From NCBI RefSeq assembly GCF_001870435.1, contig NZ_MDDR01000025.1, positions 124,001-188,000 of the forward strand: 64,000 nt of DNA, given 5' to 3'. Every line of letters starts with the position of its first letter. Position 1 is the stretch's first letter. Positions 36,484 through 47,179 of this stretch are shown piece by piece. This stretch comes from Pseudomonas costantinii. GTDB taxonomy: Bacteria > Pseudomonadota > Gammaproteobacteria > Pseudomonadales > Pseudomonadaceae. Below the pieces are notes generated by a model. The model saw only the letters and a list, made by a program, of their open reading frames with translations. It ran no database searches and was not told where the DNA came from. The position numbers and the translations under genes are program-made.

Positions 36484-36510
36484 AACCAAATGATCTGCAA
36501 GATTTTCCGG
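36484..36510 (+). promoter_or_regulatory. Conserved 27-bp upstream motif (desaturase copy)
   Basis: AACCAAATGATCTGCAAGAT then TTTCCGG lies just upstream of the desaturase gene. A near-identical block (one substitution and one deletion in the first 25 bases) lies at 39998-40024 upstream of the TonB-dependent receptor. I infer a shared promoter or operator, possibly recognised by the ECF sigma factor encoded at 38391. Confidence 0.5.
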
Positions 36511-36551
36511 CCTCAATGCACAGAGCAGGAAACACCTGCTCTGAGCTGCCG

Positions 36552-37481
36552 ATGGCCAACTATCTTGATCTGACCCAACGCCGGGAAATCGAAGCCCTGG
36601 CCCAACGATTTACTGCAAAAACCGAATGGCCGACCTGGCTGTTGTTGATCGGCGTGTATGCCGGCTGGTTCGCCGTGATGCTCGGCAGCCACTGGCTGGG
36701 CCTGTGGCTGAGCACCCTGTTGCTGATTCCGCTGGTCACGCTGTGGCTGTCGGTGCAGCACGAGTTGCTCCACGGCCATCCCACCCGTTCCCTTCTTTTG
36801 AACAAGCTGCTCGGCTACGCCCCATTTGCCGTGTGGTACCCCTACACCCTGTACCGTGACAGCCACCTGTTGCACCACAACGACGAAGACCTGACCCTGC
36901 CGGGCATCGACCCGGAAAGCCGCTACCTGAACCAACACCAATGGGACAACAGCTCGCTGTTCGAACGAGGTGTGCATTGGCTGACCAAAACCGTGCTTGG
37001 CCGTTTCCTGTTGTCGGCACCGCTGGCGATAGGGCAACTGGCTCGCCATGAGTGCCAACGCCTGCCCCAGGTATGGCCGATGTGGCTGGCCCATGGTGCC
37101 GTAACTATTCTGATGCTGAGTTTTATCGCCCACTACAGCGTATTGCCGGTGTGGCATTACCTGCTGCTGGTCAGCGTGCCGGCCTTGTCCCTGGCGTCGA
37201 TCCGTTCCTACTATGAGCACCGCCCGCATCCACAGCCGGAACAGCGCACTGTGCTCAATGAAGCCTCCTGGCCGTGGACCTGGCTGTTTCTGAACAACAA
37301 CCTGCACTTGGTGCACCACGACTTGCCGAAACTGCCCTGGTATTTACTGCCAACGGTCTATCGCGCTCGCCGCGAACAATGGGTCGCGCGTAGCGGTGGT
37401 TTTCTGGTGCAGGGTTATGGGCAGTTGATCAGCCGCCACGGCCTCAAGGCCATCGACAGCCCCCGGCACCCTTTTGCGTGA
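36552..37481 (+). CDS. Membrane fatty-acid desaturase
   Basis: Integral-membrane di-iron desaturase/hydroxylase, about 309 aa. Three histidine boxes are present: HELLHGH (70-76), HLLHHN (105-110) and HLVHHD (about 261), between hydrophobic helices. The substrate could be a fatty acyl chain or another lipid. Start uncertain: ATG 36552 opens a family-like MANYLDLTQRREIEALAQRF, while ATG 36516 would add 12 residues; neither has a strong ribosome site. The next gene begins 9 bp after its stop. The conserved 27-bp motif lies upstream. Confidence 0.85.
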   Translation: MANYLDLTQRREIEALAQRFTAKTEWPTWLLLIGVYAGWFAVMLGSHWLGLWLSTLLLIPLVTLWLSVQHELLHGHPTRSLLLNKLLGYAPFAVWYPYTLYRDSHLLHHNDEDLTLPGIDPESRYLNQHQWDNSSLFERGVHWLTKTVLGRFLLSAPLAIGQLARHECQRLPQVWPMWLAHGAVTILMLSFIAHYSVLPVWHYLLLVSVPALSLASIRSYYEHRPHPQPEQRTVLNEASWPWTWLFLNNNLHLVHHDLPKLPWYLLPTVYRARREQWVARSGGFLVQGYGQLISRHGLKAIDSPRHPFA

Positions 37482-37490
37482 GAGACGACC

Positions 37491-38282
37491 ATGAGTGATC
37501 ACTACGCTGAGCTGCTGATGTACGTGGCGCCGGAGCAAGTACAGCAGGCTAACCAACAGTGGTTGGCGCGTATTTTTGAACGCTTGAACCTGCGCCGCCG
37601 CGACGCCGGCCATCTTGACCTGCTCGGCCTGTGGCTCGCCCCCGAACTGCTGGTCACCCAAACGTGTGGCTACCCGCTGATGACCCAACTGCGTGGCCAA
37701 GTGCGCGTGATCGGTCGCCCACGCTACGAGCTGGCCCACAGTAGTAACGGCGAGCATTGCAGCCTGTTGCTGGCCCACGACGACAACCCGCGCACCACAC
37801 TGGCAGATTTCTACAACAGCCGCGGCGTGATCAACGGCCACGACTCCAACAGCGGCATGAACCTGCTGCGCGAGCGCCTCGCACCGTTGCAGCGCGACGG
37901 CCGTTTCTTCGCCAGCGTCGATATCAGCGGCGCCCACCGCGAAAGCCTGCGGTGGCTGCGGGAAAAGCGCGCCGACCTCGCCGCCATCGACAGCGTCACC
38001 TACGACTACCTTGCGCGTTTCTCCCCGCAAGAAGTGGCGGGGCTGCGCATTGTCAGCCACAGCGCGCCGAGCCCGACGTTGCCGTATATCGGTTCGCTGG
38101 GTTTGAGTGATGAGGGCCTGAAGCAGATTCGCGAGGCGATGAACCTGGCGTTGCAGGATTTGTCGCAGGTGGTTGAGACGTTGGGTATACAAGAAGTCCT
38201 CCCGGCCAATGAAGACGACTACCACGTGTTGCTGGATTACCAGCAACGAGCCGTCAGCGCCGGTTATCCGATACTTCAATAA
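37491..38282 (+). CDS. PhnD-like binding-protein fold, no signal peptide
   Basis: Protein of 263 aa with the fold of phosphate/phosphonate (PhnD) periplasmic binding proteins: LRGQVRVIGRPRY, DFYNSRGVINGHDSNSGMN and the later AAIDSVTYDYLARF are diagnostic. It starts MSDHYAELLMYVAP with no leader, so it should be cytosolic and probably acts as a ligand sensor or carrier rather than an import component. It is coupled to the desaturase gene. No permease or ATPase nearby. Function unknown. Confidence 0.75.
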   Translation: MSDHYAELLMYVAPEQVQQANQQWLARIFERLNLRRRDAGHLDLLGLWLAPELLVTQTCGYPLMTQLRGQVRVIGRPRYELAHSSNGEHCSLLLAHDDNPRTTLADFYNSRGVINGHDSNSGMNLLRERLAPLQRDGRFFASVDISGAHRESLRWLREKRADLAAIDSVTYDYLARFSPQEVAGLRIVSHSAPSPTLPYIGSLGLSDEGLKQIREAMNLALQDLSQVVETLGIQEVLPANEDDYHVLLDYQQRAVSAGYPILQ

Positions 38283-38390
38283 GGTTATATAAAAATACCT
38301 TTTAAATATTATTAAAGAATAAGCAGCCTTGCTAGGATCGCTCCACCGGAACACCGGACATAACGCGCAACCTACTCAGATGGAGCCACT

Positions 38391-38915
38391 ATGTCCGGCG
38401 CCGACACTTCTCACAGCGATTACGTGGGCGGATTGTTCCGCAGTCATTACGACTGGCTGTGCAGCCGTTTGCACCGCCACCTCGACTCCCGCGCGCACGC
38501 CGAAGACATCGCCGCCGACACCTTTGTCCAGCTCCTGAGTTCACCGGGACTGAGCGCGTCTGGGGTAGCGCCGATTCGTCAGCCCCGTGCCTTGCTCACC
38601 ACCATCGCCCAGCGTTTGATGTACCAGCTGTGGCGCCGCCGTGACCTGGAGCGCGCCTACCTCGATGCACTGAGCAACGACGAGATGGCCACCGCGCCGT
38701 CCCCTGAAGACCTGGCGCAAATGCTCGAAGCCCTGCAAGCCATCGACCAGTTGCTCGACGGCTTGCCGGCCAAGGTCAAGGCGACGTTCCTGTTATCCCA
38801 ACTCAATGGCCTGACCTACCCGCAAATCGCCGCCGAACTGGGCATCTCCCAGCGCTCGGTCAGCGACTACATGGCTCGCGCGCTCAACCGATGCCTGCGG
38901 CTGTGCCTGGAATGA
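38391..38915 (+). CDS. ECF sigma factor (FecI family)
   Basis: RNA polymerase sigma factor of 174 aa with region 2 (FRSHYDWLCSRLHRHLDSRAHAEDIAADTF) and region 4 (LPAKVKATFLLSQLNGLTYP, then IAAELGISQRSVSDYMARAL). It belongs to the iron-starvation FecI group that pairs with FecR and a TonB receptor, as here. Its stop overlaps the fecR-like start by 4 bp (ATGA). The upstream region is AT-rich, but I see no good Fur box, so control by iron is not evident. Confidence 0.9.
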   Translation: MSGADTSHSDYVGGLFRSHYDWLCSRLHRHLDSRAHAEDIAADTFVQLLSSPGLSASGVAPIRQPRALLTTIAQRLMYQLWRRRDLERAYLDALSNDEMATAPSPEDLAQMLEALQAIDQLLDGLPAKVKATFLLSQLNGLTYPQIAAELGISQRSVSDYMARALNRCLRLCLE

Positions 38916-39850
38916 GCGACGAACTGATCGAGAGCGCCACGCGCTGGTACGTGCTGCTGCGCTCGGGCCAGGCCAATGCGTCGGATTGGCAGCGTTATCA
39001 CCAGTGGCGTGCGGCCGACCCTCGTCATGATGCTTTGTGTCAGCAATTGGAAATGCGCCTTGGTGTATTTCAGGTTCCTCAGGCGCAGGGCGTGAGCGGC
39101 AAAGTGCTGCAGCAGGCACTGGATGCGCCTTCCAGTCGTCGTCATGTGCTGCAGATCGCTTTGATGGGGGCCGGTGTGGCGTTGGGTGCCGCTTTGTTGG
39201 CCAAGCCCGTGGGCTTATCGGAGCTGACGGCGGATATCCGTACCGGCATCGGTGAGCGCCGCACCGTCACCTTGGCCGATGGCAGCGAATTGCTGCTCAA
39301 CGCGCAAAGCGCGGCAGATATTCAGTTCAACCCGCAACAGCGCCTGGTACGCCTGCGCGAAGGCGAGTTGCTGGCCAAGGTCGCCAGCGATCGCAGTCGA
39401 CCGTTTCTGATCCAGACCGACCAGGCGCGGCTGCGCGCCTACGGCAACCGCTTTTTGGTGCGTGAACGGGAAGGGCAGGGCCAAGTCGTCGCGCTTAACG
39501 GTGCCGTGGAAATCGACAGCCGCAACGGTGAACGCCTGCAACTTGCCGCCGGCCATGAAGTGCATTACGACCGCGCCGGCTTCGGCCCGGTGCAAGCCAG
39601 CTCTTCTGGTGCCACTGCCTGGATCGACGGCTTCCTGCAAGTGCGCGACCGCCCGCTGGCTGAAGTGATCGATGCGTTGCGCCCTTATCACAATGGCGTG
39701 CTGCGCCTGGACCCAGCCGTGGCCGGGTTGCGCGTCAGTGGCCTGTATCGCCTCGACAACCCCCAGCAAATCCTCGACACCCTGGCGCGCACCTTGCCCA
39801 TCCACATCACCCGACGCACCGGCTTGTGGGTGACCGTCAGTGCCACGTGA
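38912..39850 (+). CDS. FecR-family anti-sigma/signal-transducing protein
   Basis: Inner-membrane regulator, 312 aa, relaying the receptor signal to the ECF sigma factor. N-terminal DUF4880 domain (ESATRWYVLLRSGQANASDW), then SSRRHVLQ and one TM helix at about 78-97; FecR proteins of pseudomonads often use such an RR leader. Periplasmic FecR domain (RTVTLADGSELLLNAQSAAD) and a C-terminal STN-like region (LQVRDRPLAEVIDALRPYHN) follow. Start MSDELIES overlaps the sigma stop. Its end is followed by a family-B repeat. Confidence 0.9.
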   Translation: MSDELIESATRWYVLLRSGQANASDWQRYHQWRAADPRHDALCQQLEMRLGVFQVPQAQGVSGKVLQQALDAPSSRRHVLQIALMGAGVALGAALLAKPVGLSELTADIRTGIGERRTVTLADGSELLLNAQSAADIQFNPQQRLVRLREGELLAKVASDRSRPFLIQTDQARLRAYGNRFLVREREGQGQVVALNGAVEIDSRNGERLQLAAGHEVHYDRAGFGPVQASSSGATAWIDGFLQVRDRPLAEVIDALRPYHNGVLRLDPAVAGLRVSGLYRLDNPQQILDTLARTLPIHITRRTGLWVTVSAT

Positions 39851-39865
39851 GCCACAGATGAACGT

Positions 39866-39974
39866 GCGTAGCAGCTGTCGAGCTTTAGTGAGGCTGCGTA
39901 GGGGCCACCTCGCTGTATCTGTTAGACCCAGTCGCCTGCATCGCAGCCTCGCTAAAGCTCGACAGCTCCTACGG
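39866..39974. repeat. Palindromic intergenic repeat, family B (copy 2)
   Basis: CGTAGCAGCTGTCGAGCTTT ... AAAGCTCGACAGCTCCTACG, sharing GAGGCTGCG / CGCAGCCTC inner arms with 25122-25249. It separates the fecR-like gene from the receptor gene, so the receptor probably has its own promoter. Confidence 0.85.
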
Positions 39975-39997
39975 GGAGTTGGGCGTTCTAAGGACAT

Positions 39998-40024
39998 AAC
40001 CAAACGATCTGCAAGTTTTCCTCC
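39998..40024 (+). promoter_or_regulatory. Conserved 26-bp upstream motif (TonB receptor copy)
   Basis: AACCAAACGATCTGCAAG then TTTTCCTCC, second copy of the block at 36484-36510. It lies about 70 bp before the receptor start, downstream of the family-B repeat. Confidence 0.5.
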
Positions 40025-40094
40025 CGCCATCCCACATCACTCCCGTAAGCGCTGCGGGGAGCAGCGTTCTCGAGTTTCCTTGGGGGGAGCCAAC

Positions 40095-42737
<2,643 letters not shown>

Positions 42738-42824
42738 GAAAACTTGAAGAACACACCGGTCCAGTGTGGGAGAGGCGGTGCCCACTTTGGATCTGCTTGG
42801 AACCGAATCACCAAGAGGCTACAC

Positions 42825-43838
42825 ATGAAAACAATTAAAAACCTGCTCGGTGGCTCGCTGCTGGCACTGACCATCCTGGCCCAACCAGCCCCCGCCGCCG
42901 AGGCGGTCAAACCGATCCACTTCGGTGACATCACTTGGGAAAGCGGCAGCCTGATCACCGAAGTGCTGCGCCTGATCGTCGAGAAAGGCTACGGCCTGCC
43001 CACTGACACCTTGCCCGGCAGCACCGTGAGCCTGGAAGCCGCCCTGGCCAAGGACGACATCCAGGTGATCGGCGAAGAGTGGGCCGGGCGCAGTCCCGCG
43101 TGGGTCAAGGCCGAGAGCGAAGGCAAAGTGTTTGGCCTGGGCGACACGGTCAAGGGCGCCACCGAAGGCTGGTGGGTACCCGAATATGTGATCAAGGGCG
43201 ACGCGACACGCGGCATTAAACCCTTGGCGCCAGACCTGAAATCGGTGGCTGATCTGGCGCGCTACAAGGACGTGTTCCGCGACCCTGAAGACCCCACCAA
43301 AGGCCGTTTCCTCAACAGCCCCACTGGCTGGACTTCGGAAATCGTCAACAGTCAGAAACTCAAGGCTTACACACTGACCGACAGCTTCGTCAACTTCCGC
43401 ACCGGCTCCGGCGCGGCGCTGGATGCTGAAGTGGCGTCGTCGATCCGACGCGGCAAACCGGTGCTGTTCTACTACTGGTCGCCGACCCCGCTGCTGGGCC
43501 GCTTCAAGTTGATCAAACTGGAAGAGCCGCCGTTTAACGCAGAAGCCTGGAAAACCTTGTCCGACGCGAAAAACCCTAACCCGCAAGGCACTCGCTCGAT
43601 GCCTGCGCGCTTGGCAATTGGCGTGTCTGCACCGTTTAAGGCGCAGTACCCGCAACTGGTGAGCTTCTTTGAAAAAGTCGACCTGCCGATCGACCTGCTC
43701 AACGGCATCCTCGGTGAAATGAGCGAGAAGCGTCAGCCACCACGCCAAGTGGCTGAAGCGTTCCTCAAAGAGCAGCCGCAGGTTTGGCAGCAGTGGGTGC
43801 CGGCGGATGTGGCGGCCAAGGTCAAGGGAGCGCTCTGA
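42825..43838 (+). CDS. Periplasmic binding protein of the glycine-betaine (OpuAC/ProX) family
   Basis: SBP of 337 aa with a Sec signal peptide (MKTIKNLLGGSLLALTILAQ, cut after PAPA-AEA). The OpuAC fold is seen from IHFGDITWESGSLITEVLRL through IGEEWAGRSPAW, TEGWWVPEYV and FYYWSPTPLLG; the Trp/Tyr-rich sites could form the aromatic cage that binds quaternary amines. No cognate permease or ATPase nearby, so it must share or borrow one. The start sits 87 bp after the receptor stop, and its TGA overlaps the next ATG by one base. Confidence 0.85.
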   Translation: MKTIKNLLGGSLLALTILAQPAPAAEAVKPIHFGDITWESGSLITEVLRLIVEKGYGLPTDTLPGSTVSLEAALAKDDIQVIGEEWAGRSPAWVKAESEGKVFGLGDTVKGATEGWWVPEYVIKGDATRGIKPLAPDLKSVADLARYKDVFRDPEDPTKGRFLNSPTGWTSEIVNSQKLKAYTLTDSFVNFRTGSGAALDAEVASSIRRGKPVLFYYWSPTPLLGRFKLIKLEEPPFNAEAWKTLSDAKNPNPQGTRSMPARLAIGVSAPFKAQYPQLVSFFEKVDLPIDLLNGILGEMSEKRQPPRQVAEAFLKEQPQVWQQWVPADVAAKVKGAL

Positions 43839-44764
43839 TGCTGAAATTTATTGCTGGCGCTGTTCTGTCGATGGTCGCAGGCCACGTGCTGGCGGCCGAA
43901 CCTTCCACCTTGCGCATCGGCTACCAGAAAAGCTCGGTGAGCATGGTGCTGGCCCGTGAGCACAAGCTCTTCGAAGAGGGGCTGCCCGGCACTCAGGTGC
44001 AGTGGATCGAATTCCTCGGCGGCCCGCCGCTGATCGAAGCGCTGAATGGCGGCAGCCTGGACATCGGCAATATCGGCGACATCCCGCCGATCTTCGCCCA
44101 GGCCGCCGGTATCGACTTGCAGTACATCGCCGTCGAGCCTAACGAAGGCAAAACCGAAGCGGTGTTGGTGCCCAAAAACAGCCCCGTGCAAACCGTGGCT
44201 GAACTCAAGGGCAAGCGCGTGGCGCTGCTCAAGGGCTCCAGCGCCCACAACCTGTTCCTCAAAAGCCTGCTGCGCGCCGGCTTGCAGTGGAAGGATGTAG
44301 ACGTGGTGTACCTGTCGCCGTCCGACGGGCGTGCCGCGTTTGAACAAGGCAAGGTGGACGCCTGGGTGGTGTGGGACCCGTACTACTCGGCCGCCGTGGT
44401 CGACGGTTCTGCACGCTTGCTGGGGGATGGCCAAGGCCTCAACCCCGCGGGCAGTTTCTTCGTCGCCAGCAGCCCATTTGCCAAGCAACACCCGCACGCC
44501 ATTGCCGCGATTATCAAGACCCTGGGCAAGGCACAGCGCCTGTCCCTCGACCAACCCGAGGAAAGCATCGCGCTGATGGCCAAGACCCTGGGGCTGCAAC
44601 CGGCGGTGGTGAAAAGCTACTTCGAACACCGCTCACCCGCACCGATTCGCCCGCTGGAAGCCATCGACATTGCCAACCAACAACGCACCGCCGACCTGTT
44701 TTTCGCCAACGGCCTGATCCCGAAAAAGGTCGATGTGCAGCAGATCGTGTTCAAGGCCCCGTAA
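43838..44764 (+). CDS. Periplasmic binding protein of the aliphatic-sulfonate (SsuA) family
   Basis: SBP of 308 aa with a signal peptide (MLKFIAGAVLSMVAGHVLA-AEP). The mature start LRIGYQKSSVSMVLAREHKL, then LNGGSLDIGNIGDIPPIFAQ and GKVDAWVVWDPYYSAAV, is the SsuA/NrtA/TauA signature. Ligand may be a sulfonate or another organic acid. It overlaps the betaine-type SBP gene by one base, which strongly suggests that the two act together. Again no SsuB/SsuC in the window. Confidence 0.87.
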   Translation: MLKFIAGAVLSMVAGHVLAAEPSTLRIGYQKSSVSMVLAREHKLFEEGLPGTQVQWIEFLGGPPLIEALNGGSLDIGNIGDIPPIFAQAAGIDLQYIAVEPNEGKTEAVLVPKNSPVQTVAELKGKRVALLKGSSAHNLFLKSLLRAGLQWKDVDVVYLSPSDGRAAFEQGKVDAWVVWDPYYSAAVVDGSARLLGDGQGLNPAGSFFVASSPFAKQHPHAIAAIIKTLGKAQRLSLDQPEESIALMAKTLGLQPAVVKSYFEHRSPAPIRPLEAIDIANQQRTADLFFANGLIPKKVDVQQIVFKAP

Positions 44765-44783
44765 CCCCATCAGTGAGCAGACC

Positions 44784-45788
44784 ATGCAACCGATCTACAT
44801 CGACTTTCTCAACGGCCTGGACATCGAAGAACTGGGCTTAAGCAACGACGAAATCCTCACCGCGATTGAAGCCAGCCTGGCTATCCAGGGCCGGGGCGAG
44901 GCGGTGATTGAGCCGCGCACCCATCTGATTCCTGGCGGTGAAATCAACGGTCACTTCAACGTGTTGCGCGGTGTGCTCGGCGGCGATATCGGCTACGCCG
45001 GGGTCAAGGTCGTGGGGGACTTTGTCGACAACTACCGCAAGGGGTTGCCATCTGAACTGGCCATTCTCAACCTGCTGGACCCGGCCACGGGCATTCCCAA
45101 GGCCATCCTCGACGCTTCGGCGATCACCGATATGCGCACCGGCGCGGTCACCGCCATCGGCGCCAAATACCTGGCCCGGCCCGACAGTAAAGTGCTGGCG
45201 CACATCGGCGCGCGCGGCACCGCTTACTGGAACGTGCGGCTGCTGGACCACCTGTTCGACTTCGAGGAAATCCGCGTGCACTCGCGCCGCAGCGAAAGCC
45301 GCGAAGCCTTCGCCGAACGCCTGCGCCGCGACCTTGGCAAACCGGTGATTGTCACCGACGACTGGGAATCCACCGTGCGCGGCGCCGATATCGTGGTCGA
45401 GGCCTCGCGCCTGGATCAGCCCGCGCCGTTGTTGCGCACCGACTGGATCAAGCCCGGCGCCTTTGTGGTGCCCTACGGCACCATGAGCGCGGTGGAATTG
45501 TCGCTGACCGACATCATGAGCAAGCTGGTGGTGGACGATTGGGGGCAATGCAAAGGCGGTCTGTTTGGCGCATTGCGCGCCCATGTCGACGCCGGAAAGC
45601 TCAGTGCCGAGACCCTGCATGCCGAGCTTGGGCAGATTGTCGCCGGCTTGAAAAGCGGTCGGGAAAACCCGCAAGAAACCATCCTGTTCTGGCACCGAGG
45701 CTTGAGCCTCAGTGATATCGCTCTGGGCCATGCGCTGCTGGAGAAAGCCAAGCGCTCAGGTGTTGGGCAGCGGTTGCGTTGGGCATGA
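44784..45788 (+). CDS. Ornithine-cyclodeaminase/mu-crystallin-family oxidoreductase
   Basis: NAD(P)-dependent enzyme of 334 aa. The OCD fold is clear: FNVLRGVLGGDIGYAGVKVV, TDMRTGAVTAIGAKYLARPD and KPGAFVVPYGTMSAVELS. The nucleotide-binding loop reads HIGARGTAYWN instead of the more usual GxGxQA, suggesting a distinct subgroup. OCD-family members include proline-forming deaminases, alanine and lysine dehydrogenases and ketimine reductases, so the reaction is open. It lies 19 bp after the SsuA-like gene and its stop overlaps the lyase start (ATGA). Confidence 0.82.
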   Translation: MQPIYIDFLNGLDIEELGLSNDEILTAIEASLAIQGRGEAVIEPRTHLIPGGEINGHFNVLRGVLGGDIGYAGVKVVGDFVDNYRKGLPSELAILNLLDPATGIPKAILDASAITDMRTGAVTAIGAKYLARPDSKVLAHIGARGTAYWNVRLLDHLFDFEEIRVHSRRSESREAFAERLRRDLGKPVIVTDDWESTVRGADIVVEASRLDQPAPLLRTDWIKPGAFVVPYGTMSAVELSLTDIMSKLVVDDWGQCKGGLFGALRAHVDAGKLSAETLHAELGQIVAGLKSGRENPQETILFWHRGLSLSDIALGHALLEKAKRSGVGQRLRWA

Positions 45789-47179
45789 TTCATTTCGATC
45801 CCCAAGGCCTGACACTCGCGGATTTGCTGGCGATTGCCCGCCAGGAAGCACCGACGGACTTCACCGCGCAGGCCCGCCAACGCATCGATGAAGGCCACCA
45901 GTTGCTGGTGAAGCTCGCGGCTGAAGGCACGCCGATTTATGGCGTCACCACCGGCCTCGGGGCGGCGGTGGATACGCCGGTGGTGCCAGTGCAGGCGAGC
46001 ATTCCGTTGGGGCGTGCAGTGGGCGTTGGGCGTTTGGCGAATCGACAGGAGCTGCGCGCGATCACGGCTGCACGCTTGGCGGGGTTGGCCCAGGGCCGTT
46101 CGGGCATTTCGCCGAGAGCGGCGGATGCGTTGTTGGCGTTGCTCAACGCAGGCACAGAACCGCCAGTGCCGCTGCTCGGCTCATTGGGTGAGAGTGACCT
46201 GGCACCGTTGGCACACCTGAGTTTGGCGTTGTCCGTACCATTAAGCGGCAAAGATGGCCTGGCGCTGGTGTCGGCGAATTCGGCGAGTGTCGGTCTCGGC
46301 GCGTTGCTGGTGGCCGAGGCGCAGCAGGTGTTGGACGCTTTGTTGGCGGCGCTGGCGTTATCGTGCGAAGGCTATCGAGCCAATCTCAGTCCCTTTCAGC
46401 CGTGGGCTTCACGCTTGCGGCCGGCGCCTGGGCAAACCAAACAATCGGCGGCGCTGTTGCAACTGCTTGAGGGCGGTGAATTGGCGGACGGCCCACGCCG
46501 CTTGCAGGACCCGTTGAGCTTCCGCTGTGCCACGGTAGTTCAGGGCGCAGCGCAACAGGCGTTGCAACAGCTGCATGAATTGGTCGAGTTGGAGTTGCGC
46601 AGTGGTGCGGATAACCCGGCGTTGATCAGCGAAGAATCATTGGTATTGGCCACGGCCAATTTCGACAGCACGCATCTGGCGCTGGCCGCCGAAGGGTTGG
46701 GCTTGGCACTCAATCGAGTTGCCGCGTGCAGTGCGGAGAGAATTGCCAAGTTGCTATCGCCAGCCTCCAGCGATTTGCCGCGCTTTCTGATCACCCAACC
46801 GGGTCATGTCGGGATGGCTGCCTTACAGCGCACGAGCTCGGCGTTGGTCGCGGAAATCGGCCATTTGGCCAACCCGTTGCCGGCAGTGAGCGTGCCGGTG
46901 GCAGATCGTGTGGAAGACTACGCCGGACAGGCTCTGGCGGTGGTCGACAAGACCCGTCGTTTGGCCGAGCGGGTGTTGTGGCTGGTCAGCATTGAACTGA
47001 TCGTCGCCGCGCAAGCGGTGGATCTGCGCGGTGCGCTGCGATTGGGGCAGGGCGTTCGGCAGGTTCATAACTTCGTGCGCAGCCAGGTCGCCTATCTGGA
47101 CCAGGATCGCTCAGGCTCGGTGGATGTGTTGGCGCTGAGCGCTTTCATCACCGATGGCCACCTGAAACCCATTCTTTAA
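45785..47179 (+). CDS. Histidine-ammonia-lyase-like protein lacking the ASG (MIO) triad
   Basis: Cytosolic protein of 464 aa, about the length of HutH minus a short segment. The catalytic-Tyr motif is present as IYGVTTGLG (Tyr52). Where HutH has GASGDLAPLAH, this protein has GESDLAPLAH (135-144): one residue is missing and the Ala-Ser-Gly that forms the MIO cofactor is gone. QDxYSxRC is QDPLSFRC (Tyr to Leu). So it may be a MIO-independent lyase, possibly eliminating an amine other than ammonia; ergothionase is such a relative as I recall. Last gene of the cluster, overlapping the OCD stop by 4 bp. Earlier in-frame TTG 45779 has no ribosome site. Confidence 0.8.
   Translation: MIHFDPQGLTLADLLAIARQEAPTDFTAQARQRIDEGHQLLVKLAAEGTPIYGVTTGLGAAVDTPVVPVQASIPLGRAVGVGRLANRQELRAITAARLAGLAQGRSGISPRAADALLALLNAGTEPPVPLLGSLGESDLAPLAHLSLALSVPLSGKDGLALVSANSASVGLGALLVAEAQQVLDALLAALALSCEGYRANLSPFQPWASRLRPAPGQTKQSAALLQLLEGGELADGPRRLQDPLSFRCATVVQGAAQQALQQLHELVELELRSGADNPALISEESLVLATANFDSTHLALAAEGLGLALNRVAACSAERIAKLLSPASSDLPRFLITQPGHVGMAALQRTSSALVAEIGHLANPLPAVSVPVADRVEDYAGQALAVVDKTRRLAERVLWLVSIELIVAAQAVDLRGALRLGQGVRQVHNFVRSQVAYLDQDRSGSVDVLALSAFITDGHLKPIL

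What the first reader, a model, noticed from the sequence alone, without database searches (positions are those of the whole stretch)
36484..47179. Possible uncharacterised sensing-import-breakdown system: sigma/FecR/TonB receptor, two orphan SBPs, OCD-like enzyme and MIO-less lyase
Nine genes on one strand, with overlapping or very short spacings between most of them, combine cell-surface signalling (ECF sigma, FecR, STN receptor), two periplasmic binding proteins of different families (betaine-type and sulfonate-type) with a one-base overlap, an OCD-family oxidoreductase and a HutH-like protein. No permease, ATPase or siderophore gene is present. A quaternary-amine or sulfur-bearing amino-acid derivative (for example ergothioneine, hercynine or a related betaine) would fit the betaine SBP, sulfonate SBP and lyase together; an opine or other metallophore is the main alternative.
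Basis: partly seen in the sequence, partly recalled or inferred. Interest (0 to 1): 0.8.

Follow-up and report, generated by a model that had tools for sequence, protein, structure and literature searches.

The report
Pseudomonas cassette for a histidine-like betaine
A self-regulated set of nine bacterial genes appears to sense, take up and break down a small quaternary-nitrogen nutrient, probably a trimethylated form of histidine, using a close but distinct relative of the enzyme that degrades ergothioneine.

Summary
Observation confirmed. Nine + strand genes (36516-47179) encode a diiron desaturase-type protein, a cytosolic PhnD-like protein, ECF sigma, FecR, STN-TonB receptor, ProX-type and SsuA-type binding proteins, an OCD-family enzyme and a HutH-like lyase. 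Of 25 Pseudomonas loci, 18 keep all seven genes probed in this order. A 22-base motif lies before the desaturase and receptor genes and nowhere else in the genome. The lyase lacks the MIO triad and falls in a sister group of ergothionase (94/94). Elsewhere lyase and OCD often sit beside betaine-type ABC transporters and sometimes in hut loci with ordinary urocanate hydratase. ProX is 49% identical to this genome's HutX. Best reading: import and trimethylamine-eliminating breakdown of a histidine-like betaine, hercynine favoured. Ergothioneine is less likely: no thiourocanate hydratase over cut-off. Against: Arg replaces the HAL pocket His; SsuA is unexplained; 20 of 30 OCD-anchored loci lack the lyase; OCD, PhnD-like and desaturase roles are unknown. 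No paper on it was found in the searches made.

The parts
36484..36505 (+). Promoter-like motif 1 (AACCAAATGATCTGCAAGATTT), presumed ECF-sigma promoter of the desaturase-PhnD operon
   Evidence: exact motif before the desaturase gene in 14 of 25 Pseudomonas loci; only 2 matches in the whole genome at up to 3 mismatches (reversed-pattern control: 1)
36516..37481 (+). PF00487 diiron desaturase/hydroxylase-type membrane protein (start perhaps 36552)
   Evidence: His motifs HExxHGH, HxxHH, HxxHH invariant in 9 aligned sequences; homologues next to OCD in L134, L136, L162, L163, L165
37491..38282 (+). Cytosolic PhnD-like (PF12974) binding-protein-fold protein; no signal peptide seen by eye
   Evidence: model pLDDT 90.8, nearest folds AioX/ArrX/PtxB/PhnD
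38391..38915 (+). ECF (FecI-type) sigma factor
38891..39850 (+). FecR-type anti-sigma regulator
39998..40019 (+). Promoter-like motif 2 (AACCAAACGATCTGCAAGTTTT), upstream of the receptor gene
   Evidence: exact motif before the receptor gene in 14 of 25 Pseudomonas loci
40095..42737 (+). TonB-dependent receptor with N-terminal STN signalling domain (880 aa from GTG 40095)
   Evidence: only low-scoring, mostly plug-level similarity to solved receptors
42825..43838 (+). ProX/HutX-type periplasmic binding protein without its own permease
   Evidence: 49% identity to HutX of this genome's hut locus
43838..44764 (+). SsuA-type aliphatic-sulfonate binding protein
   Evidence: SsuA_fam over cut-off; 346 bits to E. 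coli SsuA 2x26; absent from L041, L044, L060, L065
44784..45788 (+). OCD/mu-crystallin-family NAD(P)-dependent enzyme, discrete orthologue family
   Evidence: 84 plasmid records, all at 60-80% identity; alanine dehydrogenase 1omo nearest
45785..47179 (+). MIO-less HutH-like lyase, sister group of ergothionase

Best explanation
The cassette is a cell-surface-signalling regulon for a histidine-like betaine, most likely hercynine (N-alpha-trimethylhistidine). Proposed steps: ligand on the STN-TonB receptor signals through FecR to the ECF sigma, which fires two promoters (before the desaturase gene and before the receptor gene); the receptor brings the ligand across the outer membrane; ProX captures it and hands it to a shared permease elsewhere (HutWV or Cbc); in the cytoplasm the MIO-less lyase expels the already good leaving group (trimethylamine), giving a urocanate-type acid that the ordinary Hut pathway can finish. 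OCD, the PhnD-like protein, the desaturase and SsuA probably modify or sort related forms of the substrate; their steps are not known. Shown here: gene identities, conserved co-occurrence, the two-site motif, absence of the MIO triad, the phylogenetic position, the HutX relationship and some Hut links. Inferred: ligand, reaction, permease sharing and sigma-promoter pairing.
For: Lyase nearest by sequence to ergothionase 6s7j (191 bits against 175 for HAL); Ala-Ser-Gly in 0 of 105 rows of the window's group, LQDPLSFR and SxN of the window's lyase shared with ergothionase; MIO-less clade 100/100 without the motif columns, window's group 94/94. ProX 49% identical to HutX; HutXWV takes part in histidine uptake (PMC8871633, passages). 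Outside Pseudomonas an OpuC-type SBP lies near the lyase in 22 of 55 loci; the one tested (L049) is an OpuAC protein with a ProV-family ATPase partner and has EgtUC (171 bits) and OpuCC (162 bits) among its solved relatives, behind engineered acetylcholine/nicotine sensors (up to 194 bits). HutU/I/G/F genes lie near OCD in 5 of 30 OCD-anchored genome loci (L130, L131, L149, L152, L168) and on plasmids L107 and L137; five such HutU genes were scored (L107; L131, L137, L168 and partial L130), all fit ordinary HutU and none reaches the thiourocanate-hydratase cut-off. Two-site motif in the genome. A second ECF-FecR-STN receptor-OCD-lyase row in another class (L167).
Against: The position of HAL His83 (numbering recalled) is Arg in 85 of 105 rows of the window's group, window included, but His in all 7 ergothionase-clade and all 6 MIO-HAL rows, so the side chain bound may not be a plain imidazole. 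In rhizobial loci L109, L129 and L140 the partners are a CoA-transferase, SDR and MaoC, which suggests other acids. 20 of 30 OCD-anchored genome loci have no MIO-less lyase of the two clades nearby, several of them on short contigs, and 29 of the 80 lyase loci kept (from 194) lack OCD (21 are Mesorhizobium or Labrys, 4 are cut by contig ends). Two OCD loci have MIO-type HutH instead (L131, L139). SsuA does not fit hercynine. A ligand this small should not need a TonB receptor. Foldseek ranks HAL above ergothionase on a weak model (pLDDT 68).
Confidence: 0.43

Rival explanations
1. Catabolism of an N-alkylated histidine such as an opine-type metallophore: the receptor imports a metal complex, OCD oxidises the opine C-N bond and the lyase releases the histidine moiety as a urocanate-type acid.
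For: FecI/FecR/STN receptor architecture typical of metallophore uptake; OCD family includes SbnB-like enzymes; dipeptide-type ABC genes near OCD in some loci (L134, L136, L154); Hut links.
Against: The ABC partner seen most often outside Pseudomonas is betaine-type; a secondary amine is a poor leaving group without MIO (inference); no Fur-box match in the window at up to 3 mismatches; no opine dehydrogenase or nicotianamine-synthase-like family among the nine genes (the rest of the genome was not searched for them).
Confidence: 0.15
2. Ergothioneine itself is the substrate and the lyase is an ergothionase; sulfur is removed by a route that uses the desaturase, OCD and SsuA.
For: Sister group of ergothionase; EgtUC among the solved relatives of the Enterobacterales binding protein; a YeiH-type putative sulfate exporter near OCD in L105, L109, L129, L137; L105's lyase lies in the ergothionase clade and sits with OCD and the PhnD-like gene.
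Against: No thiourocanate hydratase over cut-off in this genome; the two loci with thiourocanate hydratase (L103, L145) show no OCD in the stretch held; His to Arg change in the pocket.
Confidence: 0.15
3. Another anionic or aromatic amino-acid betaine, or a sulfonated betaine, is the substrate; the lyase group has several substrates.
For: Arg in place of HAL His83; SsuA with 346 bits to E. coli SsuA; CoA-transferase/MaoC/SDR neighbours (L109) and FMN monooxygenases (L106, L132, L135).
Against: ProX/HutX relationship and Hut links point to histidine; SsuA is missing in 4 of 25 Pseudomonas loci.
Confidence: 0.22

Closest known systems
Ergothionase (ergothioneine trimethylamine-lyase, T. denticola 6s7j/6s7q)
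   Same: HAL fold, no MIO triad (GE-x-D), SxN and LQDPLSFR motifs, Tyr and Arg of the HAL active site kept (roles recalled)
   Different: Separate sister group; Arg instead of His in the side-chain position; partners are OCD, PhnD-like and, in some loci, ordinary HutU rather than thiourocanate hydratase and thiohydantoin desulfurase; the window's subgroup lacks a stretch of about 25 residues
HutXWV histidine transporter and Hut pathway of Pseudomonas
   Same: ProX 49% identical to HutX over the full length; lyase of the HutH superfamily
   Different: No permease/ATPase in the cassette; separate ECF regulon; lyase without MIO
FecI-FecR-FecA cell-surface signalling
   Same: ECF sigma, FecR and STN receptor in order
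   Different: Sits with catabolic enzymes and periplasmic binding proteins; ligand unknown
OpuC/EgtU-type betaine ABC transporters
   Same: Partner transporter of the orthologous lyase/OCD in many loci outside Pseudomonas
   Different: In Pseudomonas replaced by a TonB receptor plus orphan binding proteins

Membership tests
Ergothionase | HAL-superfamily lyase without the Ala-Ser-Gly MIO triad | tested here: met
Ergothionase | Falls in the clade of the characterised enzyme | tested here: not met
   ergothionase clade 100/100 excludes the window's lyase, which lies in the sister group (94/94); filed as sister group, not as ergothionase
Ergothionase | Thiourocanate hydratase in the same genome | tested here: not met
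   best match 690 bits, under the cut-off of 930; positive loci L103 and L145
Ergothionase | Releases trimethylamine from ergothioneine | not testable with these tools
   needs enzyme assay
Histidine ammonia-lyase (HutH) | MIO-forming Ala-Ser-Gly | tested here: not met
   G-S-L-G-E-S-D in place of G-S-V-G-A-S-G-D; below the HutH cut-off
FecI/FecR/FecA-type cell-surface signalling | ECF sigma + FecR + receptor with STN domain, adjacent | tested here: met
   (STN 24.5 bits, under its 28.4 cut-off, in the expected position)
FecI/FecR/FecA-type cell-surface signalling | Sigma factor fires the receptor promoter | not testable with these tools
   a shared motif exists; pairing with this sigma not shown
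Quaternary-amine binding proteins (OpuAC/ProX) | OpuAC domain over cut-off | tested here: met
   Trp residues W38, W86, W116, W117, W169, W218 invariant (their role as a cation cage is recalled, not tested)
Aliphatic sulfonate binding protein SsuA | NCBIfam SsuA_fam over cut-off | tested here: met
Opine-metallophore (Cnt/Zrp) systems | Nicotianamine-synthase-like and opine-dehydrogenase genes in the cassette | tested here: not met
   none among the nine genes (a purely catabolic use is not excluded)

The most novel reading that the evidence does not exclude
A widespread, previously undescribed route for histidine-type betaines, built on a large sister group of ergothionase plus a conserved OCD/PhnD-like pair, which Pseudomonas and at least one alphaproteobacterium have separately put under TonB-receptor cell-surface signalling; the PhnD-like protein is a cytosolic enzyme or sensor with a binding-protein fold.
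Probability: 0.35. Interest if true: 0.78.

Novelty: new variant of a known kind. Interest (0 to 1): 0.6.

Why it matters
Hercynine and ergothioneine are common in fungi and soils (recalled), yet the only MIO-less lyase of this superfamily named in the sources seen here is ergothionase. A dedicated cassette with a distinct lyase group would add a second branch of trimethylamine-releasing lyases, give an assignable ligand to an orphan TonB receptor and two orphan binding proteins, and offer a likely setting for an OCD family that keeps about 60-80% identity across Alpha-, Beta- and Gammaproteobacteria and Rhodococcus plasmids.

Tried and rejected
Ergothionase membership: rejected on the tree and on missing thiourocanate hydratase. 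Plain HutH: rejected, no MIO triad. Iron control: no Fur-box match in the window at up to 3 mismatches (consensus recalled); not a strong test. RNA structure in the receptor's leader: conserved sequence but z -0.72, nothing shown. Lyase model from 8 sequences was weak (pLDDT 68) and did not separate HAL from ergothionase. PhnD-like fold: nearest are AioX, ArrX, PtxB and PhnD at 12-22% identity; no enzyme with this fold stood out in the 50 rows shown, which proves nothing. Receptor ligand by homology: only low-scoring hits to solved receptors, 17 sequences, best 56 bits. Literature: nine listings; judged by titles and abstract starts, none is on this cassette, OCD pair or lyase group; only PMC13405746 and PMC8871633 were opened, for passages; the library lacks most subscription journals.

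Rows dropped and limits: trees used 57 and 39 of the lyase rows collected. One search fetched 20 of the 28 places; two more (G166, G121) were held, six were not fetched. The OCD samples are centred on genomes chosen because they carry OCD and include them; one search includes the window's own genome. My own ORF caller missed or mis-called some genes, so presence counts rest on tblastn with identity limits of my choosing. The output was cut, so not every upstream row was seen; one search recounts the motif. L019, L021, L022, L023, L024 sit on contigs of the same length as L033, L034, L037, L063, L043 and are probably the same genomes; for the 25-locus count I use loci only.
Full report
Observation. 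Most spacings are short or overlapping. The gap before the receptor (about 244 bp) holds a 32-nt inverted repeat, and the conserved receptor start is GTG 40095.

Conservation in Pseudomonas. In a sample of 115 related genomes, 8 (the window's own included) have the lyase at E <= 1e-60; the seven others keep the same nine-gene order. One of them (L024) lacks the window's flanking genes, which marks the cassette's ends. A scan of 84,980 species genomes gave 194 relatives of the lyase, of which the best 80 were kept. Of the 25 Pseudomonas loci among these, 18 hold all seven genes probed in the same order and strand; the exceptions are a contig end (L026), L036 (no desaturase, PhnD-like or ProX hit), four without SsuA (L041, L044, L060, L065) and one without a receptor hit (L045).

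Regulon. Aligning upstream regions of orthologues showed the same motif before the desaturase gene and before the receptor gene (output partly cut). AACCAANNGATCTGCAAGNTTT occurs at 36484 and 39998 and nowhere else in the 7.24-Mb genome at up to 3 mismatches; the reversed-pattern control gave one match. In the window, 100 shuffles gave none. Exact copies precede the desaturase gene in 14 and the receptor gene in 14 of the 25 Pseudomonas loci; others differ by mismatches or lack the gene. This ties the desaturase and PhnD-like genes to the receptor operon and fits one dedicated ECF sigma; the pairing itself is inferred.

Lyase. The closest solved relative by sequence is T. denticola ergothionase (191 bits) ahead of P. 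putida HAL (175 bits). The eight aligned orthologues carry G-S-[LI]-G-E-S-D where HutH has G-S-V-G-A-S-G-D and ergothionase S-S-I-G-E-G-D, and 0 of 105 rows of the window's group have Ala-Ser-Gly. LQDPLSFR and SxN are also shared with ergothionase. Ergothionase is known to lack MIO (PMC13405746, passages). With the motif columns removed, ergothionases and the window's group form one clade (100/100) that splits into an ergothionase clade (100/100) and a sister group with the window's lyase (94/94, just under the program's star) (similar). The position of HAL His83 (numbering recalled) is Arg in 85 of those 105 rows; the 20 with His are the Mesorhizobium-type loci, which have no OCD nearby; all 7 ergothionase-clade rows have His. 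The predicted model is weak and does not discriminate: HAL ranks first, ergothionase sixth.

Partners elsewhere. In Enterobacterales, Bosea, Ancylobacter, Rhizobium and an NC10 genome the lyase and OCD lie with an OpuAC-type binding protein, two permeases and a ProV-type ATPase, often plus the PhnD-like gene (family searches only on the L049 set). The L049 binding protein's solved relatives are engineered acetylcholine/nicotine sensors (up to 194 bits), EgtUC (171) and OpuCC (162). Other OCD loci have different transporters: TctC-type in L105 and L139, TRAP in L137, dipeptide ABC in L136. OCD homologues at 60-80% identity are on 84 plasmid records, 69 of them Rhizobium. In samples OCD occurs in 11 of 398, 27 of 385 and 1 of 250 genomes, the centre genomes included. 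Of 30 OCD-anchored genome loci, 10 have a MIO-less lyase of the two clades, one has a MIO-type HutH, two have only 25-27% HutH-like hits, and 5 have HutU, HutI, HutG or HutF. So the OCD is not always with the lyase. Of the 80 lyase loci, 51 have OCD.

Substrate clues. ProX is 49% identical over its full length to the HutX of this genome's hut locus, which also holds HutF, HutC, HutU, transporter genes, two HutH genes, HutI and HutG; HutXWV takes part in histidine uptake in P. fluorescens SBW25 (PMC8871633, passages). SsuA is a clear sulfonate-type protein. The five HutU-type genes near OCD that I scored, in L107 and in L130 (partial), L131, L137 and L168, fit ordinary HutU; that of L149 is cut and was not scored. 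L103 and L145 have thiourocanate hydratase over its cut-off and show no OCD in the stretch held; L145's neighbour is thiohydantoin desulfurase over its cut-off, and L103's neighbour is its 75% homologue. The window genome has no thiourocanate hydratase over cut-off. A betaine whose product is urocanate, that is hercynine, fits best, but the Arg, the SsuA, and CoA-transferase/MaoC/SDR neighbours in rhizobia leave other betaines open. Against a clean split, ergothionase-clade lyases themselves occur with OCD in L105, L107 and L137/L141.

Other parts. The desaturase-type gene has homologues next to OCD in five loci (Azospirillum L134, Terrarubrum L136, and L162, L163, L165 of unnamed, inferred alphaproteobacteria), with all His motifs kept in the four of these aligned (L134, L136, L162, L165). 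The PhnD-like protein has no signal peptide by eye and a confident binding-protein fold nearest AioX/ArrX and PtxB. The OCD is nearest to alanine dehydrogenase 1omo among solved structures. An inferred alphaproteobacterium (L167) has ECF, FecR, STN receptor, a short unassigned ORF, OCD, lyase and glutaminase in a row, a separate meeting of cell-surface signalling and this enzyme pair.

Verdict. Literature searches listed no description of it.

Noticed in passing
L171:13203-14732 (own genome hut locus): HutH1 also lacks Ala-Ser-Gly (GSVGY--LTH) and forms a separate 100/100 clade with L047 and L130 copies; [quoted passage not shown] It may not be a histidase.
   Followed up: partly
L079-L085, L087-L100 (mostly Mesorhizobium; L090 Labrys), also L071 and L073 (Labrys): MIO-less lyases without OCD, PhnD-like or betaine transporter found nearby; the three placed in trees (L071, L079, L083) fall in the window's sister group.
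   Followed up: partly
L107:12076-13719, L142:7866-9506: Ergothionase-clade lyases that begin with what look like signal peptides by eye, so perhaps periplasmic; L142 (S. meliloti pSymA) also has a DMSP-lyase-family gene nearby.
   Followed up: no
L145:3767-9533 and L103:3304-11491: Thiourocanate hydratase and lyase of the ergothionase clade together, with thiohydantoin desulfurase over its cut-off in L145 and a 75% homologue of it in L103: likely ergothioneine catabolic loci in Burkholderia arboris and a betaproteobacterial MAG.
   Followed up: partly
L167:7034-15740: ECF-FecR-STN receptor-short ORF-OCD-lyase-glutaminase row in an unnamed, inferred alphaproteobacterium.
   Followed up: partly
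G000 contigs C3, C5, C6: The same loci (e.g. hut) appear on three contigs of the window's assembly, which has 9.18% contamination listed; the assembly is partly redundant.
   Followed up: no
window 39867-39973: 32-nt inverted repeat, REP-like by eye, between fecR and the receptor gene; the stretch upstream of the motif varies among orthologues.
   Followed up: partly
L122-L124, L126-L128: Next to OCD-lyase, a PF00487 protein, a Rieske ferredoxin and a PanB-like gene, recalling mocDE of rhizopine catabolism (recalled).
   Followed up: partly
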